A stretch of 38,429 nucleotides of DNA, taken from positions 1 through 38,429 of the forward strand of contig JAGWWA010000013.1 of NCBI GenBank assembly GCA_018970605.1, in the 5' to 3' direction. Positions 11,396-36,231 of the stretch are shown here, piece by piece. Each line of letters starts with the position of its first letter. Position 1 is the stretch's first letter. This DNA comes from Planctomycetota bacterium. GTDB lineage: Bacteria; Planctomycetota; Planctomycetia; Pirellulales; UBA1268. The notes under the pieces were generated by a model. The model had not been told where the DNA came from, ran no database searches, and worked only from the letters and a program-made list of their open reading frames with translations. A program made the position numbers and the translations under genes.

Positions 11396-11430
11396 CTCGG
11401 GGCTACCCACGTCCGTCGCCGGACGTTCGC
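11396..11430 (+). repeat. Diverged partial copy of the palindromic repeat
   Basis: CTCGGGGCTACCCACGTCC followed by the family sequence GTCGCCGGACGTTCGC, starting nine bases after the FAD-enzyme stop codon. It matches the left arm and the adjacent core of the copies that follow, but the right arm is missing. Confidence 0.6.
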
Positions 11431-11485
11431 ACCGGCCGGAAGCCCAACGGTGTACGCCATGAGGGCCTTCGCGTGGTGCGCCGCT

Positions 11486-11580
11486 CGGGGCTGCCGTGCC
11501 CCGTCGCCGGACGTTCGCCTCGGCCCTCATGGCCTCGGCTCACTCGGATGCCGCCGGCTCGCGGGGCATCGGCAGCCCCG
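11486..11580 (+). repeat. Palindromic element, array copy 1 (short form)
   Basis: Left arm CGGGGCTGCCGTGCCCCG (11486-11503) and right arm CGGGGCATCGGCAGCCCCG (11562-11580) are inverted repeats differing by one inserted base. The inner part keeps GTCGCCGGACGTTCGC but lacks the CTGCGCTTCGCCATCCTG segment of longer copies. Confidence 0.8.
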
Positions 11581-11651
11581 AGGTCCCCGCAGTGATCTCA
11601 TCAGGAAGCCCAATCGCGTAAGCGATGGGGGCCTCCGCGTGGAATGCCGCT

Positions 11652-11782
11652 CGGGGCTGCCGTACCCCGTCGCCGGACGTTCGCTGCGGGCATCCTGCCC
11701 TGCGCTCACTGCACGCCGGCTGCGCTTCGCCATCCTGGCTGCGCTGGCCGCCGAGCCCGGCTCCGGGGCATCGGCAGCCCCG
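11652..11782 (+). repeat. Palindromic element, array copy 2
   Basis: Full 131-bp form. Left arm 11652-11669 (CGGGGCTGCCGTACCCCG) pairs with right arm 11764-11782 (CGGGGCATCGGCAGCCCCG). Inside are GTCGCCGGACGTTCGC, an imperfect small hairpin around GCGGGCATCCTGCCCTGC, and the segment CTGCGCTTCGCCATCCTGGC. Confidence 0.8.
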
Positions 11783-11853
11783 AGCTCCCCGCAGTGATGT
11801 CATCCGGAAGCCCAATCGCGTAAGCGATGGGGGCCTTCGGGTGGTGCGCCGCT

Positions 11854-11987
11854 CAGGGCTGCCGTGCCCCGTCGCCGGACGTTCGCCTCGGCCCTCATGG
11901 CCTCGGCTCACTCGGATGCCGCCGGCGCTTCGCCATCCTGGCTGCGCTTGGCGGCATGCGCCGGCTCGCGGGGCATCGGCAGCCCCG
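11854..11987 (+). repeat. Palindromic element, array copy 3
   Basis: Left arm 11854-11871 (CAGGGCTGCCGTGCCCCG) pairs with right arm 11969-11987 (CGGGGCATCGGCAGCCCCG). The core is a mosaic: its first half matches copy 1 and its second half carries the CTTCGCCATCCTGGCTGCGC segment of copy 2, which suggests recombination between units. Confidence 0.8.
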
Positions 11988-12008
11988 AGCTCCCTGCAGT
12001 GATGTCAT

Positions 12009-12080
12009 CAGGAAGCCCAATCGCGTAAGCGATGGGGGCCTCCGCGTGGAATGCCGCTCGGGGCTGCCGACGTCCCGTCG
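12009..12080 (+). repeat. Truncated array copy 4
   Basis: The hairpin leader is intact and almost identical to copy 2, followed by the left arm CGGGGCTGCCGACGTCCCG. The element then stops and unique sequence begins, so the core and right arm are lost. Confidence 0.7.
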
Positions 12081-12399
12081 CGGCATCCAGGTGCAGGTCG
12101 GCAACCGTTCCCTACGCGGGGAGCCCCGACGAAACCGGGCGGCCAGCAGGCTTGTTCGAGTGTGCACGAGTCGGCTTCCACGCGGTGGTGAAGGGCGCGA
12201 ACCTGCCGGTTGTGCCGCTGCTGCGGGCAGCGGCAGGCCATTGCCGGCCCCGCCACCTCCGGGCCGGCGCCGGGAAACCGGGTGTATGCTTGAGCGGATC
12301 GGTCTGCCGGCAAAGTTTGGCCAGGCCGCTTCTCTTTCCTGTTCCGCAGGGTCGCCTGTTCGAGCGGAGCAGAGCCCGTCTCGCCTCATCCCGAGTTCG

Positions 12400-14715
12400 A
12401 TGTCCGACAACCGCGAGTTCATCGAGGAGTTTCTGGTCGAGTCGAGTGAGAACCTCGACCAACTCGACAAGGACCTGCTCGCGCTGGAGGCCGATCCGGC
12501 CGACCCGCAGCGGCTCGCGAGCGTGTTTCGCACGGTTCACACGATCAAGGGCAACAGCGGCTTCTTCGGCTTTTCCAAGCTCGGAGCCCTCGCCCACAGC
12601 GGCGAGCACCTGCTCGGCAAGCTTCGCGACGGCAAACTGCGGCTGGATGATCGCGTGGCGGGCACGCTCTATTCGATGGTCGATGCCGTCCGCACGATCC
12701 TCCAGTCGATCGAAACCGCGGGCAACGAGGGCGACCACGACTACCGCGAACTCTCGCGGACGCTGGCGGCGGTCGCGGAGCAGTCGCAGGCGGCCGTGGA
12801 AGTCGCCACGGCACCATCGACCCCGGCCGTTCCTCCCGAGCCATCGTCATCCGAGCCAGCTGCCGTGGAGCCGCCGGCGCCGGAGCCGCTCACGGTTGCC
12901 CACGCTGAGCCGGTGGAGTCTTCGCCTCCTCAGGTGACACCGCCCCCTGTAGCACCACCGGCTCCGATCCAGCCCGCTGCCGCGGCGGTCGCAGTGCCTG
13001 GCAGCGCCGCTCCTAACTCGCCTGCGGCATCTCCGCCGGCGACCGTCTCCGCCACGGAGACGACCGTCCGCGTCGATGTGGAACTACTCGCCTCGATCCT
13101 CGACCTGGTGGGCGAACTGGTGCTGGCCCGCAACCAACTGCGGAGCGTCGACAGCGACGATCCGGCTGTGCAGGCCTGCTCCCAGCGGATCAACGCGGTC
13201 ACCAACGCCCTGCAGGAGACCGCCGTCAAGACCCGGCTGCAGCCCGTCGAGCATGTCTTCAACCGGTTTCCCCGGACCGTCCGCGACCTCGCGGTGTCGT
13301 GCGGCAAAGAGGTGCAGCTGGTCATCGACGGCGCCGACACCGAACTCGACCGCTCGCTGATCGAGAGCATCCGCGACCCGCTGACGCACCTGATCCGCAA
13401 CGCCGTCGATCACGGCATCGAGCCACCCGACGTGCGTGCCGCCACCGGCAAGCCGCGGGCAGGCCGCTTGTCGCTGCGGGCCTTCAATGAGAGCGGCCGC
13501 GTCACGATCGAGGTGTCCGACGACGGTGGCGGTATCGCCTTCGAGAAGGTGCGGGAGAAGGCGATCGCCCGCGGCCTCGTGTCGGCCGCCGAGGCGGCGG
13601 CGCTGTCGCCGGAGCGGGTTCTGCAGTTCATCTTCGAGCCCGGGTTCTCGACTGCCGCCCAGGTGACGAGCGTCTCGGGCCGCGGAGTCGGCATGGACGT
13701 CGTCCGTACCAACATCGAGGCGATCGGCGGCACGATCGACATCCAGAGCGTGCCCGGCATGGGCACCACCGTCCGCGTGCACGTGCCGCTGACGCTCGCG
13801 ATCATGCCGGCGCTCGTGGTCCGGTGCGGCAGCGAGCGGTTCGCCATCCCGCAGTCGGCGGTCGGAGAGCTCGTGCCGGTTTCCCGCGATCGCAGCGGTC
13901 CGCGCATCGAAGGCCTGGCCGACGCTCCCGTGATGCGGGTTCGTGGTCGGCTCGTGCCGATCCTGTTCCTCGACCAGTTCCTCGGCATCCGCGAGACGAC
14001 CGCCTGCCGCGAGGAAGGAACCGTGGTCCTCGTCCGCGTTGACGATCACGAGTTCGGGCTCGTCGTCGATGGCATGCAGTCGGCCGCCGACCAGTTTCGC
14101 TGCCGCGACCTGCTCGACGCCGCCAGCCTCTCGACCATCGTGGTCAAGCCGATCGGCGGACTGCTCGCGGGTCTCGGGCTCTATTCGGGGGCGACCGTCC
14201 TCGGCGACGGCGGCGTGGTGCTGATCCTCGATCTCCGCGGGCTGCAGCGCATCGCCCGGCTTCCGCCCGTCGCCCGCGAGCCCGAAGCGGCCCTGGTGCC
14301 GTCGGCCGAGATCGCCGACCGATACCTCGTCTGCGGCACGCCGGCGGGGCGGCGGGTGGCCGTGCCCTTGGCCGACGTGGTGCGGCTGGAGCAGTATCAA
14401 CATGACAAGGTGCAGGTCGTCGCCGACCGCGCCGTCGTCCGTCGGGGCGAAGGGTTCACGCCGCTCGCCGACATCGACGAGGTCTTGGGGCGGCCGCCCG
14501 GCGCGACGCCTCAGACGCTCAATGTGGTCGTCATCGACGGTGGCGACGTCGGCGTGGGCCTCGCCGTCGCGACGATCCTCGACGTGCTCGCCGCCGAGTC
14601 GCCGATGCAGCCGACGGCTGCGACGGGCGTTTCCGGCATCCTGTCGCTGGGCGGCATCGCGACCGAGGTGGTCGATCTCCGCGCGGCGCGGCGGCACGTG
14701 GCGATCGAGGCCTGA
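12400..14715 (+). CDS. cheA: Chemotaxis histidine kinase CheA
   Basis: Cytoplasmic kinase coupling receptor arrays to response regulators; 771 residues. The HPt (P1) domain is at 1-130 with phosphoacceptor His47 in TVHTIKGNSGFFGF. Residues 131-219 are a Pro/Ala/Ser-rich linker where the CheY-binding P2 domain would be; no P2 fold is apparent. The dimerisation helices are at about 222-300 (LVGELVLARNQL). The ATPase carries N box HLIRNAVDHGIE, G1 VSDDGGGI and G2 GRGVGMDVV. The C terminus appears to hold two CheW-like domains, about 462-620 and 640-771. ATG 12400 starts directly at the HPt helix. The cheW gene begins one base after the stop, so the chemosensory genes are co-transcribed. Confidence 0.95.
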   Translation: MSDNREFIEEFLVESSENLDQLDKDLLALEADPADPQRLASVFRTVHTIKGNSGFFGFSKLGALAHSGEHLLGKLRDGKLRLDDRVAGTLYSMVDAVRTILQSIETAGNEGDHDYRELSRTLAAVAEQSQAAVEVATAPSTPAVPPEPSSSEPAAVEPPAPEPLTVAHAEPVESSPPQVTPPPVAPPAPIQPAAAAVAVPGSAAPNSPAASPPATVSATETTVRVDVELLASILDLVGELVLARNQLRSVDSDDPAVQACSQRINAVTNALQETAVKTRLQPVEHVFNRFPRTVRDLAVSCGKEVQLVIDGADTELDRSLIESIRDPLTHLIRNAVDHGIEPPDVRAATGKPRAGRLSLRAFNESGRVTIEVSDDGGGIAFEKVREKAIARGLVSAAEAAALSPERVLQFIFEPGFSTAAQVTSVSGRGVGMDVVRTNIEAIGGTIDIQSVPGMGTTVRVHVPLTLAIMPALVVRCGSERFAIPQSAVGELVPVSRDRSGPRIEGLADAPVMRVRGRLVPILFLDQFLGIRETTACREEGTVVLVRVDDHEFGLVVDGMQSAADQFRCRDLLDAASLSTIVVKPIGGLLAGLGLYSGATVLGDGGVVLILDLRGLQRIARLPPVAREPEAALVPSAEIADRYLVCGTPAGRRVAVPLADVVRLEQYQHDKVQVVADRAVVRRGEGFTPLADIDEVLGRPPGATPQTLNVVVIDGGDVGVGLAVATILDVLAAESPMQPTAATGVSGILSLGGIATEVVDLRAARRHVAIEA

Positions 14716-14716
14716 C

Positions 14717-15202
14717 ATGAGCGACCCGCGTATCCACCACTGCTGCACGTTCCGCATCGGCGATGCCTGCTTCGCGCTGCCCGCCGACGGCGTCGTCGAG
14801 GTGCTCCGCGGCGGCGGGCTGGCCCGCGTGCCGCTCGCGCCGGAGGGCGTGCGTGGGCTGGTGCACCTGCGGGGCCGGATCGTGCCGGTCGTCGATCCGG
14901 CGGCGCAGCTCGGCGTCAGCCGTGTCGCCCCGGAGCGGGCAACGCACCTGGTGATCGCCCTGCAGGACGACTGGTACGGCCTCGTGATCGACGAGATGCT
15001 CGACGTGGTCGAGATTCCGGCCGACCGTGTCGAGCAGGCCGCCACGCCCACCACCGAGTCCAGTGGCGACGCCTTGATCGGGGTTTTCGCCGCCCCCGAC
15101 CGGCTCGTGCATCTGCTCGATCCCCAGCGCATGATTCATTCACTCACGCGGCTCCGGCCGCAGGCACCCGAGAGACAGGGAGTTTCCCATGGCAGATCGT
15201 GA
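14717..15202 (+). CDS. cheW: Chemotaxis coupling protein CheW
   Basis: A 161-residue CheW that links receptor tips to CheA. It shows the typical SH3-like strands ([23 protein letters not shown]), the hallmark [22 protein letters not shown], and [23 protein letters not shown]. The start is one base after the cheA stop, and the end overlaps the receptor start by 14 bases (15189-15202), so translational coupling is likely. The C-terminal tail after [12 protein letters not shown] is short and Arg-rich. Confidence 0.94.
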
Positions 15203-17330
15203 TCATGCCGCCGTCGGCGGCTGGCGTTCGTTCCTCACCAATCCCCTCCTCCTCGCCCTGCTCGGGGTGTCGCTGATCCCCATGCTCTTCATGGGGCTGA
15301 TGAACTACCGCACGTCGTCGGCGGCCCTGCGGGAGCAGGCCTTCAAGCAGCTCGACACCGTCAATGCGATCACCGCGAAGGCGGTGGAGCGGTATTTCTC
15401 GACCCTGCGGCAGGAACTCTCCGTCCTGGCCGAGGGGCGGATCTGCGTGGAGTCGCTGCAGAAGTTTGCCGCCGGCATGGCATCCCTGCGGAACGACGAC
15501 AGGATCGACGACCAGGCACTCGCCGCCGCCCGCCGCGACCTCGAGGCCTTCTACACCGGAGACTTCACCACGGAGTTTCGCCGTCGGTCGGGCGAGTCGG
15601 TCGATCTCCGGCCGCTCTGCCAGGCGCTCGACGACGACTCGGCCTACGCGCAGTACCTCTACATCCGCTCCAACCCGAATCCGATCGGCTCCAAGTTCCT
15701 GCTCGAAGCCGCCGCCGACGGGTCGCCGTATTCCGCGGCCCACGCCGCCTACCATCCGTTCTTTCGCGGGCTCTGTGAGAAGTATGGCGTGTCCGACGTG
15801 TTCCTGATCGACGCGGCGACGGGCAAGGTGGTCTACAACGTGTCCAAGGAGACCGACTTCGGCACGACGCTGCGGGAGGGCCCGATGGCCTCCTCGAGTT
15901 TGGGCTTCGCCTTCCAGCAGGCGGTGGCGGCCGGCCGCCGCGATGCCGTCGCCTTCGGGCTTTTCCAGCGGTACCTCCCCTCGTGCAACGAGCCGGCGAG
16001 CTTCATGGCGGCGCCCATCTTCGACGGCCGGACGCTGGTTGGGGTCGTGGCCTTTCAGGTGCCGATCGACAAGGCCAACGCGATCATCGGCGAGACCACC
16101 GGCATGGGAAAGTCCGGTGAGACCTATGCGATCGGACCCGACCGGCTGTTTCGAAGCGATTCCCGATTCACCAAGGAACTCGGGGCGAAGACCACGATCA
16201 TCAATCCGGAGTTCAAGGTGGACACCGCCGCAGTCCGCGCGGCGCTCGACGAGGGCAAGTCCGGGACGGCGGAGGCGGCCGACTACCGCGGCGTGCCGTC
16301 GCTGGTGTCGTGGCGGCCGATCACGATCCACCGCGACGCCACCGGCGGCCGGGAAGACGTCCGCTGGGCGCTGATCTCCGAGATCGACACCGCCGAGGTC
16401 TTCCAGCCGGTCTCACGGCTCTTGAAGCTCGGCTTGACGGTGTTTGGACTCACCTCGGCGGCCGTGCTCGGTGTCTCGACCTTGATCGCCCGCCGGCTGA
16501 CCCGCGAATCCCAGCGGCAGGCCGCGCTCGTCGGCGGCATCGTCGACAACACCCACGCCCTGGCGAGTTCCTCCGAGGAACTCACGAGCGTCAGCCAGCA
16601 GATGAGCGCCGCCGCGGAGCAGACCACCGCCCAGGCCAACCTGGTGTCGGCTGCCGCGGAGCAGGTGAGCGGCAACACCCGGACGGTGGCCGGCTCGATC
16701 GACAACCTGGTGGCGAGCATCCACGAAATCGCCAAGAACGCGCAGGAGGCCGCGACCACGGCTCGCAAGGCGGTGGAGATGGCGTCGGCCACGTCGGGCA
16801 CGATGGCGGCCCTCGGCCGCTCCAGTCAGGAGATCGGCGCGGTGATCAAGGTGATCACGTCGATCGCCGAGCAGACCAACCTCCTGGCGCTCAATGCCAC
16901 GATCGAGGCCGCGCGGGCCGGGGAGGCGGGCAAGGGTTTTGCGGTGGTGGCGAGCGAGGTCAAGGAACTCGCCCGCGACACGGCCAAGGCCACCGAGGAG
17001 ATCGGCGGCCGGATCGAGTCGATGCAGGACGACACGCAGCGGGCCGTCGAGGCGATCGCCAGGATCGGCGACGTGATCGAGCAGATCGACAGCCTGCAGA
17101 CGAAGATCGCCGCGGCGGTGGAGGAGCAGTCGGTGACGACGAGCGAGATCGGCCGTAACATATCCGAGGCGACCACTGGCACGTCCGAGATCGCGGAGAA
17201 CATCGTGCAGGTGGCCCAGGCCGCGCAAAGCACCGCGGAGGGCGCGTCGAATACGCAGGTCTCATCGCAGGAACTCTCGCGGATGGCCCAGGCCCTGCAG
17301 CGGCTGGTCGAGGAATACAAGAAGAACTGA
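15189..17330 (+). CDS. Methyl-accepting chemotaxis protein without HAMP
   Basis: Membrane chemoreceptor of 713 residues. Membrane segments lie at about 18-38 and 411-433. The 370-residue extracytoplasmic region resembles a double Cache sensor ([24 protein letters not shown], then [21 protein letters not shown]). After the second membrane segment the chain goes from [18 protein letters not shown] straight into the coiled-coil signalling domain, with no recognisable HAMP. The kinase-control tip is [20 protein letters not shown] followed by [15 protein letters not shown]. The C terminus VEEYKKN lacks the NWETF-type CheR tether. It overlaps cheW and precedes cheB by 51 bp. The ligand is unknown; a small molecule is likely from the Cache fold. 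Confidence 0.93.
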
Positions 17331-17343
17331 TCGCCGACCGCGA

Positions 17344-17359
17344 CCGGCCCAGCGGCCGG
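17344..17359 (+). other. Small hairpin between receptor and cheB
   Basis: CCGGCC (17344-17349), loop CAGC and GGCCGG (17354-17359) form a perfect 6-bp stem between the receptor stop and the cheB ribosome-binding site. It could influence mRNA processing or relative expression; it lacks a T tract, so it is not a convincing terminator. Confidence 0.35.
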
Positions 17360-17381
17360 CCGGGACAGGGAGGATCCCGCC

Positions 17382-18824
17382 GTGCGTGCCCTCGTCGTCG
17401 ATGATTCCAAGCCGAGTCGGAGCATCGTTGCGCGGGCGCTCACCGATCTGCGGTTTGAATGTTCGGAGGCCGGCAACGGCCAGGAGGCACTGGCCGCACT
17501 GGCGGCGTCGGCGCGGCCCGATCTGATCACCGTCAACTGGCACATGCCGGTGATGGACGGGATCGAACTGGTCCGGCGGCTCCGCCGCGAGCCGGCCTAC
17601 CGAAAGCTCCCGATCCTGATGATCTCCACGGAGCACGAGCAGGAGCGGATCGCGCTGGCTCGGCAGGCGGGAATCGATGACTATCTCGCCAAGCCCTTCA
17701 CGGCCGCGGCACTGGCCCGCAAGCTCGTTGATCTCGGCGTGGTTGCGGAGCCGGCGCAGACGGGGGGCCGGGATCCGATCGGCGTCTTGATCTGCGACGA
17801 CTCCGCAACCATCCGGGGCATTCTCTCGGCCACGCTCGCCGCCGACCCGGAACTGAAGATCGTGGGCACCGCCGTGAACGGTGAGGCCTGCCTGGCGGCG
17901 ATCCCCTCAGCGCGGCCCGATCTCGTGCTGCTCGACGTCGAGATGCCGGTGATGGACGGGATCACCACGCTTCGTGAGATTCGCCGCCGGTTCGGCAAGC
18001 TGCCCGTCGTGATGTTTTCGAGCCTCACCGAGCGCGGCGCGAAGGCCACGGTCGATGCGCTCCTGGCGGGTGCCAACGACTACGTCGCCAAGCCTGCCGG
18101 CCTCGACGCGGCCGAGGTGGCGGAGCGGATCCGCACCGATGTGATCGGCCGGATCAAGTCGCTCATCCCCCGGCGGGCGGCCAGCGCCGGCGGTCGATCC
18201 GTCTCCCGGATTTCCGAGGCTCCGCGGCCCCTCCGTCAGGAGCGGATTCGCGGCGTGGTGATCGCGGTGTCCACCGGCGGCCCGACCGCACTCGCCGAGG
18301 TGCTGCCCGCGTTCGTCCCCGACGCCCGCGTGCCGATCCTCGTGGTCCAGCACATGCCCGCCGCGTTTACCGCGCACCTCGCGGAACGCCTGGCGAAGAC
18401 GGGGGGGCTGACGGTCCGCGAGGCGGCTGACGGCGATCTCGCCAAGCCCGGCGAGGTGCTGCTCGCGCCCGGGGGTCGGCATCTCGAACTCGTGAGCGAT
18501 ACGCCGCAGCCTCGGGTGCGGCTCACCGACGACCCGCCGGAGAACTCCTGCCGCCCGGCCGCCGATGTGTTGTTTCGCTCGGCGGTTCGCCTCTGGGGTG
18601 GCGGCACCCTGGGCGTGGTGCTCACCGGCATGGGGAAAGACGGGCTCGCCGGCAGCCGCGAGATCGTGGCCGCCGGGGGGAGCGTGATCGCCCAGGACGA
18701 GTTTTCGAGCGTCGTCTGGGGCATGCCCGGCGAAGTCGTGCGGGCGGGGCTCGCCGATGCGGTCTTGCCACTCTCGCAGGTCGGCGTCGAGGTGGCCCTC
18801 CGGCTCAAGAGGCGCGGCGGCTGA
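17382..18824 (+). CDS. cheB: REC-REC-CheB fusion (receptor methylesterase) with Asn in first receiver
   Basis: A 480-residue protein-glutamate methylesterase with two receivers. Receiver 1 (1-120) has the acidic pair Asp7-Asp8, Ser82 and Lys104, but Asn52 replaces the phosphoacceptor Asp (VNWHMPVMDG, codon AAC at 17535-17537). Receiver 2 (132-255) has the normal Asp186 in LLDVEMPVMDG. The catalytic domain (288-478) shows the triad Ser297 (AVSTGGP), His324 (VQHMPAAF) and Asp420 (TGMGKDG). CheB would demethylate the receptor, opposing CheR. The start is GTG at 17382, supported by GGGAGG about eight bases upstream and by the receiver strand MRALVVDDS. The cheR gene starts 17 bases after the stop. 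The extra inactive-looking receiver is unusual. Confidence 0.94.
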   Translation: MRALVVDDSKPSRSIVARALTDLRFECSEAGNGQEALAALAASARPDLITVNWHMPVMDGIELVRRLRREPAYRKLPILMISTEHEQERIALARQAGIDDYLAKPFTAAALARKLVDLGVVAEPAQTGGRDPIGVLICDDSATIRGILSATLAADPELKIVGTAVNGEACLAAIPSARPDLVLLDVEMPVMDGITTLREIRRRFGKLPVVMFSSLTERGAKATVDALLAGANDYVAKPAGLDAAEVAERIRTDVIGRIKSLIPRRAASAGGRSVSRISEAPRPLRQERIRGVVIAVSTGGPTALAEVLPAFVPDARVPILVVQHMPAAFTAHLAERLAKTGGLTVREAADGDLAKPGEVLLAPGGRHLELVSDTPQPRVRLTDDPPENSCRPAADVLFRSAVRLWGGGTLGVVLTGMGKDGLAGSREIVAAGGSVIAQDEFSSVVWGMPGEVVRAGLADAVLPLSQVGVEVALRLKRRGG

Positions 18825-18841
18825 CGCCGCGCGAAGCCTCG

Positions 18842-19669: not shown

Positions 19670-19696
19670 CGGGCGCCGTTGGGGGCGCTCACCGGA

Positions 19697-19776
19697 GTGA
19701 TGTCGTCAGGAAGCCCAATCGCGTGAGCGATGGGGGCCTTCGCGTGGTGCGCCGCTCGGGGCTGCCGACGCCCCAG
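19697..19776 (+). repeat. Truncated repeat copy at the cheR/PP2C convergent junction
   Basis: GTGATGTCGTCAGG joins the hairpin leader (AAGCCC, ATCGC, loop GTGA, GCGAT, GGGGGC; about 19708-19741) and then the left arm CGGGGCTGCCGACGCCCCAG from 19757. The core and right arm are absent. It lies between two converging genes. The rest of 19670-19845 has no gene. Confidence 0.75.
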
Positions 19777-19845
19777 TCTCCGGCTGGTGGCGAGCCAACT
19801 CGTGCCGTCCCACGGCTGGCTTTGGCGAGGCCGGTGTGAGGCGCT

Positions 19846-21270: not shown

Positions 21271-21284
21271 GGCCGCCCCCGCCG

Positions 21285-23164: not shown

Positions 23165-23173
23165 TCCGCCGCT

Positions 23174-23306
23174 CGGGGCTGCCCATGCCCCATCGCCGGA
23201 CGTTCGCGTCGGGCATCCTGCCCGACGCTCACTGCATGTCCGCTGCGCTTCGCCATCCTGGCTGCGCTTGCTCCCATAGCCCGGCTCTGGGGCACGGGCA
23301 GCCCCT
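23174..23306 (+). repeat. Palindromic element at the BBP7/TPR convergent junction
   Basis: The left arm GGGGCTGCCCATGCCCC (from 23175) and right arm GGGGCACGGGCAGCCCC (23289-23305) pair at 16 of 17 positions. Nested inside is a perfect 10-bp stem GCGTCGGGCA/TGCCCGACGC (23206-23215 and 23219-23228, loop TCC). The core is almost identical to the copy at 36102-36231, with about five substitutions and one indel. An arm-end A-T pair here is G-C there, a compensatory change. Confidence 0.85.
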
Positions 23307-23370
23307 CGCTCCATCATGTTCCGATGTGAGTCAAGAAAGGGGAGCAGTCGGCCGGCCGTCGCGTCGCACG

Positions 23371-23415: not shown

Positions 23416-23444
23416 GAGGCGTTCCTGCGGCGGTGTCACTCCGC

Positions 23445-26215: not shown

Positions 26216-26275
26216 CACTGAAATCTCCTCGAGGAGGGTCGAACAGGGGCCAGGTGTCTCAGGGGCCAGGGGTCT

Positions 26276-26293: not shown

Positions 26294-26302
26294 CGGTTCG
26301 AA

Positions 26303-27253: not shown

Positions 27254-27354
27254 GACTCGTCTCTCCAGGCTGTTCGTGCGGGCCAACGAAGGACCGCGAA
27301 GGATCGAATTAAAAGACCATCTTCCCGTGGAGCTTGCAAGCAGCCGGTGGGCCG

Positions 27355-28443: not shown

Positions 28444-28545
28444 CTGTCTGCCTCCCTGCGGCCGTCGTCCGGAACCCGCCTGGTCCAGATCGGGGCGAGA
28501 CGCAATCGACCAGAAACCCGGCTGACAGGCAACTCGAGAAGGCGA

Positions 28546-28583
28546 AAAAGCGGGGGGCCGGGCGTTTTCACGCCCGGCCCCCC
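28546..28583 (-). terminator. Strong intrinsic terminator of the YTV gene
   Basis: GGGGGGCCGGGCG (28552-28564) and CGCCCGGCCCCCC (28571-28583) are exact inverted repeats with a 6-base loop. On the minus strand the stem is followed by GCTTTTTCGCC. It lies 53 bases past the YTV stop codon and upstream of the desaturase ribosome-binding site, so it separates the two genes. Confidence 0.9.
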
Positions 28584-28636
28584 TGGACCAACCTGTGGGC
28601 ACATCGGCATCGGGTGGAACCCGATGCAGTCAGTGC

Positions 28637-30667
28637 TTACTTGCAGCGACGGCAGCCGCAGCCGCGACGGCGGCCACCGCACTCGCCGCAGGCAGCAGCC
28701 GAGGCACCGCCGCAGCTGTCGCAGGCCGAAGCCTCGCCACAACCGCCGCAGGCACCGGCGTCACCGCCGCAGCCGCCGGCAGCACCGCAGCCACCGGCCG
28801 AGCCGGCGTCACCGCAGCCACCGCAGGCGTTCTCGACGGGCACCTCGACGGCGACCGTCACGCACTTCTGCACCGGCACTTCCTTCGTGACCGTGTGCGG
28901 GACGCGAACCGTGTAGCTCTGCGTCTTCGTCTCGGGCACGCAGTCATACACCGTCACGGTGTACGACTCTTCCTTCTGCTGGGGAACCATGACCGTGTAG
29001 GAAACTTCCTTGGTCATCGTCTCCGGCACGCACTTGGTCACCGTGTACTCCCGAGTCTTGGTCTCGGTGCGGTACTTGGTGACGTTGACCGAACGGCTCT
29101 TCTGCTCCGGCACCATCTTGGTGACGGTGTAGGTGCGGGTCCGCTCTTCCGGCACCATGGTGGTGACGGTGTAGGAGCGGGTCCGCTCTTCCGGACGGTA
29201 CTTGGTGACGCTGACCGAGCGGGTCTTCGTCTCCGGAACGCACTTGGTGACCGTGTAGGTCCGGGTCCGCTCTTCCGAGCGGTACTTGGTGACGTTGACC
29301 GAGCGGGTCTTCGTCTCCGGAACCATCTTGGTCACGGTGTAGTTCCGAGTCCGCTCTTCCGAGCGGTACTTGGTGACGTTCACCGAACGGGTCTTCTGCT
29401 CCGGCACCATCTTCGTGACGGTGTAGGTGCGGGTCCGCTCCTCGGGGCGGCACTTCGTGACCGTGTAGGTCCGGGTGCGCTCCTCGGTGCGGCACTTGTT
29501 GACCGTCACCATCCGGCTCCGCTGCTCCTGACGGCACTTGGTGACCGTGTAGGAGTAGGGGACCTCCTCAGTCGTGCACTGGTAGGTCGTGACCGGGACT
29601 TCCTTCGTTTCGCACGTCGGAACCCAGACACGCTTGCAGCACGTCTTCGGGGGGCAGGGGCAGCCGCAGGCGTCGGTGCCGGCCGAGGCGACCTCGACCT
29701 GCTGCGTGGCCCAGTGGCCGCCACGGACCTGCACCGTCTTCGACGACTGGACCGGGACGCGCTTCTGCACGGTCCGGCTGCCGGTCATCTCTTCGGTGTA
29801 GGGCACGTTCACCGTGTAGGTCTGCTCGACCTGCTCGGTGTAGGGAACGTTCACCGAGTAGGTCGAAACCTTCTCTTCGGTGTAGGGAACCATGACCGTG
29901 TAGGTCGAGGTCTTCTCTTCCGAAACCGGCACCATCACCGTGTAGGTCTGCTCGACCGACTCGGTGTAGGGGACCTGGACCGTGTAGGTCGAGGTCTTCT
30001 CTTCCTGAACCGGCACGTGCACCGTGTAGGTCTGCTCGACCGACTCGGTGTAGGGGACCTGGACCGTGTAGGTCGAAGTCTTCTCTTCCGGCACGGAGGT
30101 CATCACCGTGTAGGTCTGCTCGACCTGCTCGGTGTAGGGAACCTGAACCGTGTAGGTCGAGGTCTTCTCTTCCTGCTTCGGAACCATGACCGTGTAGGTG
30201 GAGGTCTTCTCCTCGCTCACCGGCACGTTCACCGTGTAGGTCTGCTCGACCGACTCGGTGTACGGAACCTGGACGGTGTACTCAGCCGTCTTGGTTTCCG
30301 TCACGTTCTTGTTGACCGTGTAGTTCACGGTCTTGGTCCGAGTCTCGGGAACCTGCACGGTGACCGTGCGGGTCTTCGTCTCGGTCCGCGGGACGCGCTT
30401 GTTGACCGTGTAGGTCCGCTCGCGGGTCTCGGTGGTGTACTCAGTGCTCGTGACCGTCTTCATCTCGGTCACGTACTGCTTCTGGTACACCGTCTTCGTG
30501 CCGCACGAGGCGGCACAACCACCACACTCACCACCGCTGACGACGGCGCCGCTTTCAACGACGCCCTCGCTGCCACTGCCGCAGGCGCAGTCGGCGGCCC
30601 ACGTGCTGGTGCACGTGGCGACGACGGCGAAGGCGGTCAGGAGGCCAGAAAGAACTTTGCGAACCAC
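28637..30667 (-). CDS. YTV-repeat secreted surface protein
   Basis: An exported 676-residue repeat protein. Signal peptide MVRKVLSGLLTAFAVVATCTSTWA is followed by a Cys-rich start. A first array at about 80-300 has a 14-residue period (TYTVQVPYTESVEQ, TYTVMVPKQEEKTS). A Cys-containing middle follows (CGCPCPPKTCCKRVW, 334-348). A second array at about 371-600 has the same period but is basic (TYTVTKCRPEERTR, SVNVTKYRSEERTR). The tail (614-676) is Cys/Gly-rich. YTV repeats are described from Rhodopirellula baltica and other planctomycetes and are thought to be cell-wall or surface proteins, with Cys allowing cross-linking. The start is GTG with GGAGG five bases upstream. A promoter-like site lies near 30800-30827 and a strong terminator follows, suggesting a single, well-expressed gene. 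Confidence 0.88.
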   Translation of the reverse strand: MVRKVLSGLLTAFAVVATCTSTWAADCACGSGSEGVVESGAVVSGGECGGCAASCGTKTVYQKQYVTEMKTVTSTEYTTETRERTYTVNKRVPRTETKTRTVTVQVPETRTKTVNYTVNKNVTETKTAEYTVQVPYTESVEQTYTVNVPVSEEKTSTYTVMVPKQEEKTSTYTVQVPYTEQVEQTYTVMTSVPEEKTSTYTVQVPYTESVEQTYTVHVPVQEEKTSTYTVQVPYTESVEQTYTVMVPVSEEKTSTYTVMVPYTEEKVSTYSVNVPYTEQVEQTYTVNVPYTEEMTGSRTVQKRVPVQSSKTVQVRGGHWATQQVEVASAGTDACGCPCPPKTCCKRVWVPTCETKEVPVTTYQCTTEEVPYSYTVTKCRQEQRSRMVTVNKCRTEERTRTYTVTKCRPEERTRTYTVTKMVPEQKTRSVNVTKYRSEERTRNYTVTKMVPETKTRSVNVTKYRSEERTRTYTVTKCVPETKTRSVSVTKYRPEERTRSYTVTTMVPEERTRTYTVTKMVPEQKSRSVNVTKYRTETKTREYTVTKCVPETMTKEVSYTVMVPQQKEESYTVTVYDCVPETKTQSYTVRVPHTVTKEVPVQKCVTVAVEVPVENACGGCGDAGSAGGCGAAGGCGGDAGACGGCGEASACDSCGGASAAACGECGGRRRGCGCRRCK
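28870..30430. repeat. 42-bp coding repeats of the YTV gene
   Basis: Two blocks of 42-bp units, about 28870-29555 and 29770-30430, encode the 14-residue repeats. Units marked by GTGTAGGT (the antisense of TACAC, Tyr-Thr) recur almost exactly. Several neighbouring pairs are nearly identical, a sign of unequal exchange or gene conversion. Confidence 0.85.
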
Positions 30668-30799
30668 GCAAACCTCCAGGAAAAAGGAAACGAACAGGGG
30701 AAAATCGAGCAGGTTTTTCGCACGCGCCCGAACTTCGGTCGGCCGAAGAGACCTTTCTCTTCCGACGACCGAACGCTTCGGCCGCCTGATAAGTTGGAT

Positions 30800-30827
30800 A
30801 GATTACGTTGACTAATCCGGCTTTCAA
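30800..30827 (-). promoter_or_regulatory. Candidate sigma70 promoter of the YTV gene
   Basis: On the minus strand TTGAAA (30827-30822) and TAATCT (30805-30800) are separated by 16 bases, in an AT-rich pocket. Transcription would begin near 30793 and leave a leader of about 125 bases before the GTG at 30667. Judged by eye only. Confidence 0.4.
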
Positions 30828-30980
30828 GGGATGGGAACGGACAAAATCGGTTTTTCGTGGAAAGCCGGTCCGTCCCCCTCCGGAAACGGGGGGCGGAATC
30901 GAAAAAATGCCAGAAATCAGACGGTTTCATGATCGCCGGGACAAACGGCAGCAAGCGACGTCGGTGACGTCACGACCGGT

Positions 30981-31002
30981 AAAATCCGGTTTCCCGACCG
31001 GA
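30981..31002 (-). terminator. Possible weak terminator of the HAD-SGNH gene
   Basis: On the minus strand TCCGGT (31002-30997), loop CGGGAA, ACCGGA (30990-30985) and then TTTT form a 6-bp stem with a short T run, 65 bases after the stop at 31068. Confidence 0.35.
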
Positions 31003-31067
31003 CACGACGGTCACGGTGGAGCGTTTTCGGGCCTGAGGTGACCACGCACCCAGGCGGCCACGGGCTG

Positions 31068-32987
31068 TCAGGGAGCCACGAGCAGGTCCTTGAGCATCGG
31101 CCGCATCAACTCCGCGCGGCGGGCGTTGCCGATCGTGCTCGGGTGCTGCATGTCGTCGAGAAAGCACTCCGGCGCGGGCTTGCCGTCCGGGCCGAGGAAG
31201 GCCGCGTTGGCGTCGAGGTAGACGAGTTTCCCATCGCCGCGTGCGTCGATGCAGGCCCTGATCGCCGCATTCGCCTCCACCTGCCGATCGAGCTGTTCCC
31301 ACCGCTTCACCGTCGGGGAGATGGCGAGAAACGCGATCGTCGCATCCGGATGATCGCGGCGGAGCGAGTCGATGAGCCGCTCGAACGCGGCGCGGATGTC
31401 GCCGGTGCTGGTGCCGGCATTGACGTCGTTGGTGCCGGCCCCGACCACGATCACCCGCGGCTTCGCGGCGGCGACGAGCCGCGGCGCGAACTCGGCCAAC
31501 TCCACGAGCCGGCAGCCGCCGACGCCGCGATTGACGACGTTCATGCCGGGAAAGTCATCGGCGAGGGTGTTCCACATCCGGATATTCGACGACCCCAGCA
31601 GGACGATGCCGCCCGGTTCCACGGGCGAGTCGCGGTCGAGTTTCTCGTAGGCGGCGATTTCATCCTCCCACTTCGACGGTGACGGACCTGCGGCCGAAGG
31701 CGTCGCCGCCGGAGCCAGCGACACCTCGGCCGGTGCCGTGATCGCGGGTGTCGCCGCCGCCACGGCATGCCGAGGAGGTGTCGCGACGGTGGCCGGCTGC
31801 ACTGCGGGAGTGGTTGCGGGCTGTTTCTTGGCCAGGGGCTTGGCGAACACGCGGTTCCAATCCTCCGCGATCCGCACCACCTGCCAGCCGTACTTGTTTG
31901 CCGCGTCAAGCGACTCGTTGAGTGGCTCGCCGTAGGCCATTTCCCGCTCCGCGTCGTCGTGCAGCACGAGCAGCTGGAGGCTCGGCCGGTCGCTCGACTG
32001 CGACCAGCGCAGCATTTCGATGTCGCCGGTCGTGCCCACGTTGCCGACGGCGAGAATCGGCCGGCGGCCGATCTGCTCGCCGATGCTCACAGGCTTTCGT
32101 TCCTCGTCGTTGAGCACGTGGAGCTGCGGAAGCACGACCAGGTCGAGCCGGCGATTCGGTGTTTTTTCGTTCGCGGGCGACGGCTCTTCGACCTCCCGGA
32201 GCTCGGTGAGCGGGCGGGAGGCGATCACGTGGTCGGGGGCGATGCCGTACCAGAGCTCCGCGGCGGGCCGCATGAAATGCACGCCGCTGCCCGAGCAGAT
32301 CCAGACATCGAAGCCCTTGGTCTTGAGCAGGGCCAGCAGCTCCTTCATCGGCTGGTAGGCGACGTCGCCGAGCGGGACGTCGAACACCGGGTGACGGGTC
32401 GTGCGGATGAAATCGCGGGCCTCGGCCTCGAGTTTCTCCTCCGGGACGCCCGCCAGCGTCGAGAACGTCAGGTCGGTGAAGAACTTTTTGCCCAGCCGGC
32501 GGATGAACTCGAGGTCGCCGGTCAGGAGCGTGGCATAGGGCTCCTCGTGGGCCAGCTCCGGCCGCCGCTCCACCAGCGCCCTCACACGGTCCACCAGGAA
32601 CATGCCGTGCATCACCGGCTTCTCGCAGACGAGGGTGCCGTCGTGGTCGAACACGGCGATCCGTTCGGCCGGCGGCACGAACGTGGGGGCCGATTCGGTG
32701 GTCACGGCCGAGACGAAGTCGAGGATCGCCTTCTTGGCCGCTCCCTCGCGCCACGAGGGCAGAGGGTCGGAGACGGTGGCCACGGTCTGGCCCGGCGCCA
32801 CGGGTGCCGGCTCCGGCGTCGGGGCGGGCTTCGTGCCGAGCCAGACGGCGGCCGCCAAGAGGCCGAGGGCGACCAGTGGAATCGCCACCGCGGACGTGGC
32901 CGACGCCTTCTCGCCGCGGTGGGCGTCGTCACCGTGCGCGTCTGGTTGGGGTGTTGGCTCGTGCTCGCGATGCATCTCGTCCTTCAT
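31068..32987 (-). CDS. Membrane-anchored HAD phosphatase / SGNH hydrolase fusion
   Basis: A 639-residue protein with a short charged N terminus, one membrane segment at about 32-51 ([20 protein letters not shown]), then two enzyme domains. Residues about 105-395 are HAD-like: motif [10 protein letters not shown] with Asp114 and Asp116, motif II ICSGSG, motif IV region [15 protein letters not shown]. After an Ala/Pro/Thr-rich linker (about 400-445), residues 455-639 are SGNH/GDSL-like: block [12 protein letters not shown] (GSS in place of GDS), block II NRGVGG, block III GTNDVN, and DDMQHPST giving the Asp/His pair. The HAD part should hydrolyse a phosphoester, the SGNH part an acyl ester; substrates are unknown. 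ATG 32987 has AGGAG nearby. It is divergent from the acetylesterase gene. Confidence 0.85.
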
Positions 32988-33201
32988 GGCACAGCTCCTG
33001 GTCTCCGGTGCAACCGGTGCTCACGATACCCTGCGCCGAGGCGCCATGCGAGGAGCCGTCGGGGCGGATCCGCCACCGGCCAGCCGCGGCGGGAGATCCG
33101 CCACCGCCACGATTCCGCCGAGGGTTTCCGGAGTCTATCCACGGCGATATCCTCCGGTTCGGGAGGAACTGTTCCACCATCACTCCGGAGAGACTTGCCC
33201 C

Positions 33202-34776
33202 ATGTCCCGCGTCCGCCTCACGCTCGCCGCGTTCCTGCTCTCCGTCGCCACCACCGTCCGGGGCGACGTGTCGCTCAACAACATGTTCGGCGACCACATG
33301 GTCCTGCAGCAGGGCATCAGGAACAAAGTCTGGGGCAAGGCCGACCCAGGCGAGACGGTGACGGTGACCTTCGCCGGTCAGACGAAGTCGGCGACCGCCG
33401 CCGCCGACGGGTCGTGGAGTCTGTTTCTCGACCCTGTTCAGGAGTACGGCGGCCCGCACACGCTCGCGGTCAAAGGCAAGAACAGCGTGACGTTCAACGA
33501 CGTGCTCGTCGGCGAGGTCTGGGTCTGCTCCGGCCAGTCCAACATGCAGTGGGCCGTGAACCAGGCCAACGACCCCGATCTGGAGAAGGCCGCGGCGCGG
33601 TTCCCGAACATCCGCTTCGTGTCGGTGCCGCAGGTGGGCCAGCAGGAGCCCGCGTGGAACTTCGAGGGGACGTGGCAGGTCTGTTCGCCCGAGACCGTGG
33701 GCGACTTCTCCGCGGTCGGCTACTTCTTCGGCCGGCAACTCCACCAGACGCTCGGCGTGCCGGTGGGCCTGATCGACAACGCCTGGGGCGGCAGTGCCGC
33801 CGAAGCCTGGGTGAAGCGGGACAAGCTCGCGACCCACCCGACCCTCAGGGCGATCCACGAGCGCTGGGAGAAAGAGGAGGCCAACTACGAAAACGCCAAG
33901 GCCGAGTTCGAGAGAAAGCTGGCCGCGTGGAAGGCGGCCGTCGCGCAGGCGAAGAAGGACGGCAGTCCCGAGCCGGCCGGCAAGCCCGACGCCAAACAGG
34001 ATCCCGCCGGACGGATGAAGGGCAATGCCCGCCCGGGCAACATCCACTCGGGCGTGCTCGCGCCCTCGATCGGCTACGGGATCAAGGGGGCGATCTGGTA
34101 CCAGGGCGAATCAAACGCCGGCCGCGCCTACCAGTACCGCGATCTCTTCCCGTTCATGATCAGGACGTGGCGCGAGGAGTGGGGGCTCGGCGATTTCCCG
34201 TTCTACTGGGTCCAGCTGGCCGACTACAAAGCCGAGAAGGCTGAGCCGGCCGACAGCGACTGGGCCGAGCTTCGCGAGGCACAGACGATGACGATGAAGG
34301 CCCTGCCGGCCACCGGCGAGGCGGTGATCATCGATCTGGGCGAGGGCAAGGACATTCATCCGATGAACAAGCAGGGCGTCGCGAAGCGGCTGGCCCGTTG
34401 GGCCCTCGCCGAGACGTACCATCGGCCCGGCATCGCCTGCCGGAGCCCGCTCTACAAGGGCATGGAGAAGGATGGTGCGAAGATCGTGCTCGCGTTCGAC
34501 CACGTCGCCACCGGCGGCAAGGGCTGGCGTCCGTTCGACGTGAACGAACCGATCGGGTTCACGATCGCAGGTGCCGACCGGAAGTTTGTGCCTGCCCAGG
34601 CCAGGATTCGGGACGATGGCCGGATCGAGGTCTGGAGCGATGCCGTGGCCGAGCCGGTGGCGGTCCGCTACGCCTGGGCCGACAACCCGGTCTGCAACCT
34701 GTACGCCACGACGGGCCTGCCGCTGACTCCCTTCCGCACGGACGACTTTCCCGGCGTGACGGCCGACGCGAAGTGA
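33202..34776 (+). CDS. Sialate O-acetylesterase-family protein (SASA domain)
   Basis: An exported 524-residue carbohydrate esterase. The signal peptide ([21 protein letters not shown]) is followed by a beta-rich N-terminal domain ([21 protein letters not shown]). The SASA hydrolase has nucleophile Ser113 in [28 protein letters not shown], and the late His motif [16 protein letters not shown] Lys/Glu-rich helical insertion (about 215-285: [20 protein letters not shown]) interrupts the hydrolase. The family removes O-acetyl groups from sialic acid or from other acetylated glycans; in planctomycetes the latter is more likely (inference). ATG 33202 begins the signal peptide. The divergent HAD-SGNH gene and this one share a 214-bp control region. 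Confidence 0.92.
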
Positions 34777-34871
34777 CTGTCCGCTCCATCGTCAAACGGG
34801 TACGCTGACGAGGTCCGTCCGTTTCCGCACGGTGTCGGAACGGTCGGGTTCACGAACAGGGAGGTTGCATC

Positions 34872-35984
34872 GTGATCGACCGGGCTTTGGCGGGCGTGGT
34901 GATCGGGACGGTCTTCCTCGTGGTCGCCGGCTGCTCGACCGGCTCCAACGAGGCCCGCATCGGCGCCGAGCGTGTCGAACCGGAACTGAGTCCGCGGACG
35001 GCACGAAGCGTCGGCCCCGTGCCCGTGGTCATCGATGCGGCGCGGCCGTATCACACCTCGCGAGGGGTCGCCTCGCGGCCCGCTGCGCCGCGGCGGTTGC
35101 CGCTCGCCGGAACTGCCCAGGACGGCCTGCAGGCCGAAGTGGAGACGATGCTCGGCGACTATCTCCGCGACTTCAACCGCCACGACACCGTGGCGGTCGC
35201 CGCGCACTGGACCGAGGAGGGCGAGAACCTCGATCTTGACACGGGGGAGGCCACCGTCGGCCGCGCCGCGGTGCGGGAGGTGTTTGCGGCGCTCTTCGAC
35301 GAAGACGCCGGCGCAGCCATCGACATCGACGTGCAGTCGATCCGGCCGGTGAGTCGCGACGTCGCCGTGGTCGACGGGAACTCGACGGTCCGTTTCGGCG
35401 ACGGCGCCCGGGCCGGCAGCCGATTCTCGGCGGTCGTGGTCAGGCAGGATGGACGGTGGAAGCTCGACAGCGTCCGCGAAGCGGCCAACCCCGAGGCGGC
35501 CCACGACGGCCGGCCGCTCGATCAGTTGGCGTGGCTCGTCGGGACCTGGGCAGACCCGCGGCCGGGCATGACGGCGAGCACGCGTTGTTTCTGGAGCGCG
35601 GGCCATGGATTCCTGATCCGCACCCACGCGGTATCGGGCAGGGCCGCAGCCGGCGAGGTCGCGCCGGGCATCCCCGCTCTCCTGTCCGACTCCGAGTCCG
35701 ATGCCGCGGAGCGGGAGGTGACCGAGATCATTGGCTGGGATCCAGACAGCCAGCTGATCCGCTCGTGGGTGTTCACGTCGGCCGGCCGGTTCGCCGAGGG
35801 CACGTGGAGCCGGACGGGCGACGGCTGGCGGGTGCGGCTCGAAGGCCGGGGGGCCGACGTGGGCCGGGCCTGCGAGTGCGTGCTCACCCGCCGCGGCTCC
35901 GATGCCGTGTCGGTGAGCGGTCCGCGCGACGGACTCGCCGCCGACCTCACCCCCGTCTGCGACGTCGTCCGCGTCGGCCCCTGA
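34872..35984 (+). CDS. SnoaL-like lipoprotein, paralogue of the 26.3-kb gene
   Basis: A 370-residue lipoprotein. The signal has lipobox VVAGC with Cys21 for lipidation. A variable linker follows, then a SnoaL-like segment at about 80-210 (YLRDFNRHDTVAVAAHWTEEGENLD, VVVRQDGRWKLDSVREA) and a C-terminal domain (LDQLAWLVGTWADP, IIGWDPDSQLIRSWVF, GRFAEGTWSRTGDGW). The order and motifs match the protein at 26303-27253. The start is GTG 34872, supported by GGGAGG eight bases upstream. It follows the acetylesterase by 95 bp on the same strand and is followed by a palindromic repeat. Function unknown. Confidence 0.8.
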   Translation: MIDRALAGVVIGTVFLVVAGCSTGSNEARIGAERVEPELSPRTARSVGPVPVVIDAARPYHTSRGVASRPAAPRRLPLAGTAQDGLQAEVETMLGDYLRDFNRHDTVAVAAHWTEEGENLDLDTGEATVGRAAVREVFAALFDEDAGAAIDIDVQSIRPVSRDVAVVDGNSTVRFGDGARAGSRFSAVVVRQDGRWKLDSVREAANPEAAHDGRPLDQLAWLVGTWADPRPGMTASTRCFWSAGHGFLIRTHAVSGRAAAGEVAPGIPALLSDSESDAAEREVTEIIGWDPDSQLIRSWVFTSAGRFAEGTWSRTGDGWRVRLEGRGADVGRACECVLTRRGSDAVSVSGPRDGLAADLTPVCDVVRVGP

Positions 35985-36101
35985 CGCTCGAACGCGTCCG
36001 TTCATGACGCTCGGGACTGCATCATCGCTCCCCAGGAGCACAAGGGTGTCAACCTGTGGCTTCTACGGGTTGCACGCGAGCCTGAGGTTTACGCGAAGCG
36101 A

Positions 36102-36231
36102 GGGGCTGCCCGTGCCCGTCGCCGGACGTTCGCGTCGGGCATCGTGCCCGACGCTCACTGCATGTCCGCTGCGCTTCGCCATCCTGGCTGCGCTTGCTCC
36201 CATAGCCCGGCTCCCGGGCACGGGCAGCCCC
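36102..36231 (+). repeat. Palindromic element at the lipoprotein convergent junction
   Basis: The left arm GGGGCTGCCCGTGCCCG (36102-36118) and right arm CGGGCACGGGCAGCCCC (36215-36231) are perfect 17-bp inverted repeats. The nested stem GCGTCGGGCA/TGCCCGACGC (36132-36141 and 36145-36154, loop TCG) is also perfect. It is nearly identical to the copy at 23174 despite 13 kb of distance. Confidence 0.88.

What the first reader, a model, noticed from the sequence alone, without database searches (positions are those of the whole stretch)
11396..36231. Family of palindromic repeat elements present at every convergent gene junction
Elements of 95-134 bp with 17-19-bp terminal inverted repeats and, in the single copies, a nested perfect 10-bp stem occur at 23174 and 36102, with a truncated copy at 19697 and an array at 11437-12080. 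The window has three convergent junctions (cheR/PP2C, BBP7/TPR, lipoprotein/secreted protein) and each carries a copy. All are in the same orientation, and none overlaps a gene. Paired changes (A-T in one copy, G-C in another at the arm end) preserve the stem. They could be bidirectional terminators, mRNA 3'-end structures or a non-autonomous mobile repeat.
Basis: partly seen in the sequence, partly recalled or inferred. Interest (0 to 1): 0.85.

Follow-up and report, generated by a model that had tools for sequence, protein, structure and literature searches.

The report
Three-armed palindromic repeat between planctomycete genes
A 140-base DNA repeat that folds into a three-armed hairpin is scattered in many copies through the gaps between genes in a family of planctomycete bacteria; it looks like a large, structurally conserved relative of known bacterial palindromic repeats rather than a special marker of convergent genes.

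Summary
The repeats are real and belong to a large family. A covariance model from 56 copies finds 144 matches in the 2.86-Mb draft genome, and matches in 34 of 37 genomes of the taxonomic family but 0 of 23 from other families of the order. The unit is about 140 bp: an outer stem and two inner hairpins, with two-sided changes in 34 of 55 pairs. A·C mismatches outnumber G·T on the listed strand, so the opposite strand probably folds.

The title claim does not generalise: 17 of 109 convergent, 35 of 521 co-directional and 1 of 108 divergent gaps carry a copy, the published pattern of REPs. Only 2 of 68 have a T-run, so these are not ordinary intrinsic terminators. Copies form arrays with a smaller palindrome, co-oriented in 45 of 45 pairs; that type flanks a RAYT-like gene. 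Copies on one contig tend to share a strand.

Best reading: a new, large REP/BIME-like repeat, perhaps active as single-stranded DNA. The mobiliser is unproven; no target duplication or clean empty site was found.

The parts
23170..23310 (+). large element q, full copy, in the BBP7-like / TPR convergent gap
   Evidence: R1 match 145.7 bits; fold z -7.7
36097..36236 (+). large element q, full copy, in the convergent gap 35984/36503
   Evidence: R1 match 141.4 bits; fold z -9.6
11648..11786 (+). large element q, full copy in the array
   Evidence: R1 match 117.9 bits; fold z -5.9
11850..11991 (+). large element q, full copy in the array
   Evidence: R1 match 119.3 bits
11482..11584 (+). large element q with an internal deletion, in the array
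   Evidence: R1 match 73.7 bits, 103 nt
11395..11430 (+). head-only remnant of q
   Evidence: blastn match to q 2-38, 86%
12055..12079 (+). head-only remnant of q at the end of the array
   Evidence: read from the sequence
19753..19775 (+). head-only remnant of q in the CheR / SpoIIE-phosphatase convergent gap
   Evidence: read from the sequence
11437..11467 (+). small REP-like palindrome u (variant)
   Evidence: read from the sequence; repeat family D5
11603..11633 (+). small REP-like palindrome u
11804..11835 (+). small REP-like palindrome u
12010..12040 (+). small REP-like palindrome u

Best explanation
The large element (q) is a non-autonomous, high-copy intergenic repeat of the REP/BIME kind, but much larger and of three-way-junction shape. 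Shown: about 140 bp; one outer stem and two inner hairpins held by compensatory change; found in one planctomycete family; many copies per genome; gaps next to gene 3' ends; nearly absent from promoter-promoter gaps; arrays with a smaller GGAA-tagged palindrome (u) in fixed relative orientation; gain, loss and truncation between close relatives; and, for the small palindrome type, copies on both sides of a RAYT-like HUH/Y1 gene. Inferred: the strand opposite to the one listed folds as a single strand. The orientation clustering suggests that this happens as DNA at replication forks, where an HUH-type enzyme acting on u, or slippage and recombination within arrays, copies or moves the u-q block. 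Insertions into genes and promoters are then removed by selection, which leaves the 3'-end pattern. Any effect on mRNA ends would be secondary.
For: Copy number and range: 144 matches in the own genome (150 candidates scored); 22 of 22 genomes of the genus (own included), 12 of 15 in other genera of the family, 0 of 23 elsewhere in the order (stricter filters). Structure: 34 of 55 pairs with two-sided changes, 84.5% of cells paired against 31-46% when slid; RNAalifold on the same alignment, without my structure, finds 30 pairs, 16 with two-sided changes. Strand: at well-paired positions A.C 58 vs G.T 12 cells (19 vs 7 positions) in 56 own copies, and 92 vs 22 (21 vs 5 positions) in 72 copies from relatives; one copy folded both ways is more stable on the opposite strand (-102.6 vs -88.5 kcal/mol). 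Context: 17/109 convergent, 35/521 co-directional, 1/108 divergent; published REPs lie between unidirectional and convergent genes and mostly downstream of genes (PMC3733652, abstract and passages). u-q co-orientation 45 of 45 pairs. Same-strand pairs along contigs: 66 of 99 vs 49.7 expected (P 0.003) and 58 of 87 vs 42.9 (P 0.004). RAYT-like protein P0001 has HVH and Y----Q motifs and a Y1_Tnp match just over Pfam's cut-off, and its gene is flanked by GGAAGCCC palindromes. Of 11 family loci of this gene (own included), the 10 that could be read have repeats on both sides. Turnover: a 20-nt head left after a deletion (L247 vs L099) and an opposite-orientation copy in the same gap (L253 vs L103).
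Against: No target-site duplication above shuffles. No clean empty site: gains come as mixed blocks of u, q and other repeats. q itself is not beside any of 16 RAYT homologue loci (best E 0.051). 15 of 34 q-bearing family genomes show neither a P0001 homologue nor a Y1_Tnp match, two of three q-free family members have Y1_Tnp matches (four and one), and P0001 homologues occur in 10 of 23 q-free genomes of other families (one search is not fully sensitive). P0001 is below NCBIfam's cut-offs for REP-associated and IS200 transposases (23.7 of 80 and 28.2 of 55 bits). No autonomous parent with q ends was found in the 1.09 Mb read. Six of 11 syntenic copies are 94-98% identical beside flank alignments of 83-92%, which could mean selection for a function at the site; in the other five q is 77-89% identical. 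The link of orientation to replication is weak: skew sign agrees for 43 of 59 loci by whole-contig skew but 35 of 59 by third-position skew, rank correlations p 0.08 and 0.09, 32 of 47 by strand-balanced third-position skew.
Confidence: 0.66

Rival explanations
1. q is a bidirectional transcription terminator or mRNA 3'-end stabiliser, placed by selection behind genes.
For: 52 of 53 q-bearing gaps lie behind at least one gene 3' end. In co-directional gaps q is nearer the upstream stop in 24 of 35 (medians 92 vs 142 nt). The stem is very stable. Six of 11 syntenic copies are 94-98% identical beside flank alignments of 83-92%.
Against: T- or A-run at the element's edge in only 2 of 68 copies. 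92 of 109 convergent and 486 of 521 co-directional gaps do without one. The strand that tolerates G-U is antisense to the upstream gene in 22 of 34 unmixed co-directional gaps (p 0.12). Avoidance of promoters alone gives the same distribution.
Confidence: 0.15
2. The apparent compensatory changes come from quasi-palindrome correction (one arm copied from the other by template switching), so no selection on structure is needed.
For: Two-sided changes are frequent (244 cells) while G.T cells are rare (32 of 2995), as arm copying would give.
Against: The apical loops are also conserved (GGA in 47 and 52 of 56 copies), and the A.C/G.T asymmetry is not predicted by symmetric arm copying. Subfamilies carry different complementary sequences in the same inner arm (read).
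Confidence: 0.12
3. q is a transcribed RNA on the opposite strand that titrates the regulator CsrA through its two GGA hairpin loops.
For: Opposite-strand apical loops read CAGGAUG or similar; GGA in both loops in 43 of 56 copies; CsrA matches in 60 of 60 genomes searched. The CsrB-repeat motif is recalled, not from a call.
Against: CsrA is equally present in the 23 genomes of other families in the order that show no q. A 166-167-nt subfamily (7 of 144 copies) has another hairpin in place of the P3 loop in the two copies read. Orientation relative to genes does not favour transcription of that strand.
Confidence: 0.04

Closest known systems
REP / BIME / REPIN repeats with RAYT (TnpA_REP) genes (PMC3733652, passages and one section read; PMC3116915 and PMC2817692, search listing only)
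   Same: High-copy intergenic palindromes; unidirectional and convergent gaps; arrays; the associated small palindrome type flanks a tyrosine HUH transposase-like gene.
   Different: q is about 140 bp with a three-way junction, not 20-40 bp; no conserved 5' tetranucleotide tag found; not itself beside a RAYT gene; u and q units in arrays point the same way rather than alternating.
Class 3 TnpA_Y1 with 'atypical secondary structures', mainly Planctomycetes, Acidobacteria and Proteobacteria (PMC6006769, passages and the class 3 section)
   Same: Planctomycete host; Y----Q motif in P0001; gene flanked by palindromes that are repeated in the genome.
   Different: The published foot is CnGA; the palindromes here carry GGAA. 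Membership of P0001 in class 3 was judged by motif only.
Palindromic composite repeats such as ERIC, NEMIS/Correia, RUP and other MITEs (recalled)
   Same: Imperfect palindromes of about 100-200 bp between genes, many copies, non-coding.
   Different: No target duplication and no parent insertion sequence found; three-way junction with strong covariation; restricted to one planctomycete family among the genomes searched.
Integron attC sites (recalled)
   Same: Single-strand-folded imperfect palindromes of similar length behind genes, one strand preferred.
   Different: No RYYYAAC / GTTRRRY core boxes seen in the q consensus (read); dispersed over the genome, not confined to one cassette array.

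Membership tests
REP (repetitive extragenic palindrome) | 20-40 bp palindrome | tested here: not met
   q is about 140 bp; the associated repeat u is about 30 bp and does meet it
REP (repetitive extragenic palindrome) | conserved tag tetranucleotide (GTAG or CGTC) at the foot of the hairpin | tested here: not met
   no base in the 10 positions outside either edge of q exceeds 38 of 64 copies; u carries GGAA, not GTAG/CGTC
REP (repetitive extragenic palindrome) | high copy number, intergenic, unidirectional and convergent gaps | tested here: met
   144 matches; 17/109, 35/521, 1/108 gaps; 2 of 68 copies fall in a called frame, with no called gene beyond it on the contig
REP (repetitive extragenic palindrome) | flanks a RAYT gene | tested here: not met
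   q: no match at E <= 0.01 in 16 RAYT homologue loci. The small GGAAGCCC palindrome type flanks P0001's gene on both sides
BIME | arrays of regularly spaced palindromes in alternating orientation | tested here: inconclusive
   array steps of 166-205 bp in the window; u and q co-oriented in 45 of 45 pairs; inverted q pairs occur in relatives
MITE | terminal inverted repeats | tested here: met
   outer stem, columns 2-23 with 124-145
MITE | target-site duplication | tested here: not met
   not above the range of shuffled flanks for 3-8 nt in 64 copies
MITE | ends shared with an autonomous element | tested here: inconclusive
   two far head-tail pairs in 1.09 Mb of 2.86 Mb, both ends of neighbouring q copies by their coordinates
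intrinsic terminator | hairpin followed by T-run | tested here: not met
   2 of 68 copies have one within 12 nt
Rfam families | match at gathering score | tested here: not met
   0 matches in the window
integron attC | RYYYAAC / GTTRRRY core boxes | tested here: not met
   not seen in the q consensus by reading; box sequences recalled
REPIN-type mobility | transposition observed or clean empty sites | tested here: inconclusive
   presence/absence between relatives but only as mixed blocks

The most novel reading that the evidence does not exclude
q is a single-strand-DNA-active element: one strand extruded at replication forks folds into a conserved three-way junction (with a tandem GA/GA mismatch near the foot that, by reading, is shared with the RAYT-linked palindrome) that an HUH or other enzyme recognises, so that a whole family of planctomycetes carries a large, replication-polarised class of non-autonomous ssDNA elements, outside the hairpin architecture of REPs and IS200/IS605 ends.
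Probability: 0.25. Interest if true: 0.7.

Novelty: new variant of a known kind. Interest (0 to 1): 0.42.

Why it matters
It adds a large, structurally conserved repeat to a group (REPs and BIMEs) built on 20-40 bp hairpins, in a phylum where my few searches found little on such repeats. The strand asymmetry of mismatches is a simple sequence-only test for which strand of a palindromic repeat is under structural constraint, and the strand clustering makes a replication-linked mechanism testable. For genome readers it warns that 'a copy at each convergent junction' in one window need not hold genome-wide.

Tried and rejected
Rfam scan of the window: nothing. Viral contigs scanned with one core pattern: 0 matches, so no sign of phage carriage by that pattern. 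Target-site duplications: not above chance. Autonomous parent: none in the part read; the two far head-tail pairs are ends of neighbouring q copies. CsrA sponge: possible motif, but CsrA occurs in every genome searched whether or not q does. Dependence on a RAYT: presence does not track q; one search missed the own-genome gene that one search found, so it is not fully sensitive. GC3 skew as a replication marker: weaker than whole-contig skew. Unpaired-column control for mutation bias: only 1-2 G columns, too few to decide. attC sites: core boxes not seen by reading. Paper searches gave listings with nothing used.

Rows dropped: alignment A1 uses 56 of 61 copies (two with an inserted hairpin and three with divergent ends or gaps left out). 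For A2, 72 unique near-full rows, taken from the best 75 of 113, were counted. Of the 77 matches, nine weak opposite-strand duplicates of stronger matches were not counted, leaving 68. In one search arrays were collapsed (144 to 132 loci), 64 of the 65 matches were used (one opposite-strand duplicate dropped) and collapsed to 59. The G018 skew stretches were chosen on contigs whose copies are all or mostly on one strand. In one search, 11 of the 16 listed pairs are syntenic by my reading; the other five are repeat-to-repeat matches of L247 and L253; some flank alignments there run into q. One of 11 family RAYT loci could not be read for flanks because runs of N filled the output.
Full report
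What is there. The window is a whole contig (C38) of a 2.86-Mb draft genome in 164 contigs, 76% complete. The large one, called q here, is about 140 bp: 23170-23310, 36097-36236, 11648-11786 and 11850-11991, with an internally deleted copy at 11482-11584. The small one, u, is a palindrome of about 30 bp of the form CAGGAAGCCC...CGCGTAAGCG...GGGG; it makes up most of the 'truncated copy' at 19697 and alternates with q in the array at 11395-12079.

Structure. I aligned 56 of 61 near-full copies from the part of the own genome that I read. The consensus is an outer stem of up to 27 pairs and two inner hairpins. On a structure written by hand, 84.5% of cells are paired, 34 of 55 pairs have changes on both sides, and no shuffle of 500 reaches any of the five measures; sliding the partner drops pairing to 31-46%. 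The structure was drawn from these sequences, so the slide control leans its way. RNAalifold on the same alignment, without my structure, finds 30 pairs, 16 of them with two-sided changes. Seven of the 144 genome matches are 166-167 nt long; in the two of these read in full the extra bases form a hairpin in the loop of the second arm.

Which strand folds. In the stems as read on the + strand, A·C mismatches are far commoner than G·T: 58 against 12 cells at well-paired positions in the own genome, 92 against 22 in relatives. Counted by position this is 19 against 7 (p 0.03) and 21 against 5 (p 0.002). On the opposite strand those A·C pairs read as G·T or G·U. The opposite strand is therefore probably the one whose folding is under constraint; the one copy folded both ways is more stable on that strand. 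A mutational bias cannot be excluded: the unpaired control has only one or two G columns. Copies also share ancestry, so the p values are indicative.

Range. With the covariance model R1, 144 matches were found in the own genome, with 150 candidates scored, so the count may be capped. In 60 genomes including the own one, 22 of 22 of the genus, 12 of 15 of other genera of the family and 0 of 23 of other families in the order have q; this run used stricter filters, scored at most 53 candidates a genome, and counts range from 2 to 53 among the positives. One relative scored more fully has 65 matches (G018), and another, of 2.0 Mb, has 57 (G060). A core pattern had no match in viral contigs.

Gene context. 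I called genes with a codon-usage script on 1.09 Mb (795 genes, 88% coding). q lies in 17 of 109 convergent, 35 of 521 co-directional and 1 of 108 divergent gaps; of the 68 copies 6 are at contig edges and 2 in a called frame. Fisher p is 8e-5 for convergent vs divergent, 0.006 for convergent vs co-directional and 0.012 for co-directional vs divergent. Convergent gaps have two gene ends; per 3' end the rates are 17/218 and 35/521, nearly equal (my arithmetic). Part of this sample was chosen because it holds q; in the unselected contigs the numbers are 3 of 38, 8 of 192 and 0 of 41. In 80 loci of relatives fetched for holding the core pattern: 22 of 61, 22 of 215 and 4 of 70. So the window's three-for-three is chance plus a true preference for gene ends. 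A published survey describes the same pattern for REPs (PMC3733652: abstract and passages; section 16).

Link to a transposase. The own genome has one Y1_Tnp match, a 163-residue protein P0001 with HVH and Y----Q motifs; it is below NCBIfam's cut-offs for REP-associated and IS200 transposases. Its gene is flanked on both sides by GGAAGCCC palindromes, each with an inverted partner. Homologues occur in 11 of 37 family genomes and in 10 of 23 of other families. Of the 11 family loci, own included, the 10 that could be read have repeats on both sides, not all of the GGAAGCCC type. q is not near any of 16 homologue loci. Class 3 of the TnpA_Y1 superfamily, found mainly in Planctomycetes, Acidobacteria and Proteobacteria, has a Y----Q motif and is flanked by atypical structures (PMC6006769: passages, class 3 section); P0001 resembles it by motif only. 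15 of 34 q-bearing family genomes show no P0001 homologue and no Y1_Tnp match, and two of three q-free family genomes have Y1_Tnp matches. u and q within 300 nt of each other are co-oriented in 45 of 45 pairs (28 of 68 q copies; u found by a regular expression with 77 hits against 0 in reversed sequence), so they may travel as a block even if only u is the enzyme's target. By reading, the foot of q and the RAYT-side palindrome share the same CCCC-GA-GC / GC-GA-GGGG pattern with tandem GA mismatches; this is a lead, not a test.

Turnover. Against a close relative (G060; median protein identity 91%), conserved gene pairs share some q copies and differ in others: of 99 syntenic pairs, 4 have q in both, 2 only in the own genome, 2 only in G060, and 91 in neither. 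A comparison with 80 loci of several relatives gives 5 shared, 3 relative-only, 1 own-only and 76 neither. In one case the own genome keeps only a 20-nt head (L247 vs L099); in another the two genomes carry q in opposite orientation in one gap (L253 vs L103); in a third, q is matched by an array of u (L266 vs L052). No precise q-only insertion was found in the gaps aligned. Among 11 syntenic q pairs identity runs from 77 to 98%; six are at 94-98% beside flank alignments of 83-92%, and five are at 77-89%, one of them beside a 95% flank.

Orientation. q copies on one contig tend to share a strand: 66 of 99 pairs (49.7 expected, P 0.003) in the own genome and 58 of 87 (42.9, P 0.004) in G018. The + strand of q tends to be the G-richer strand: 43 of 59 loci by whole-contig skew, 35 of 59 by third-position skew, with rank correlations short of significance (p 0.08 and 0.09), 32 of 47 by strand-balanced third-position skew, and 7 of 9 chosen contigs of G018. 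This fits a link to replication direction but does not prove it.

Reading. q behaves like a very large relative of REP/BIME repeats. It does not meet the size, tag or RAYT-adjacency criteria of REPs, so I do not file it as one. I found no description of it in print: paper searches (listings, apart from the two papers named above) and Rfam. Function at the RNA level is not excluded.

Noticed in passing
L070:804-1295: RAYT-like gene (P0001) flanked on both sides by inverted pairs of GGAAGCCC-type palindromes, a REPtron-like unit in a planctomycete.
   Followed up: partly
L072:15261-15427, L095:506-672: q subfamily of 167 bp whose second arm carries an extra hairpin in place of the usual loop.
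   Followed up: partly
L071:4500-5040, L086:17780-18050: Frequent short palindrome AGGTTTTCAACCTG (a third intergenic repeat) beside q; not analysed.
   Followed up: no
window 28950-30330: 42-bp tandem repeat within the gene called at 28637-30667 (- strand).
   Followed up: no
L155:3134-3446, L189:6738-7050, L206:7007-7308: Pairs of q in opposite orientation, tails facing, 19-31 bp apart, in relatives.
   Followed up: no
L133, L145, L166, L173, L176, L180, L187, L198, L208: In these nine loci, each as long as its contig, the contig ends inside q, so the repeat may break assemblies and copies may be undercounted.
   Followed up: no
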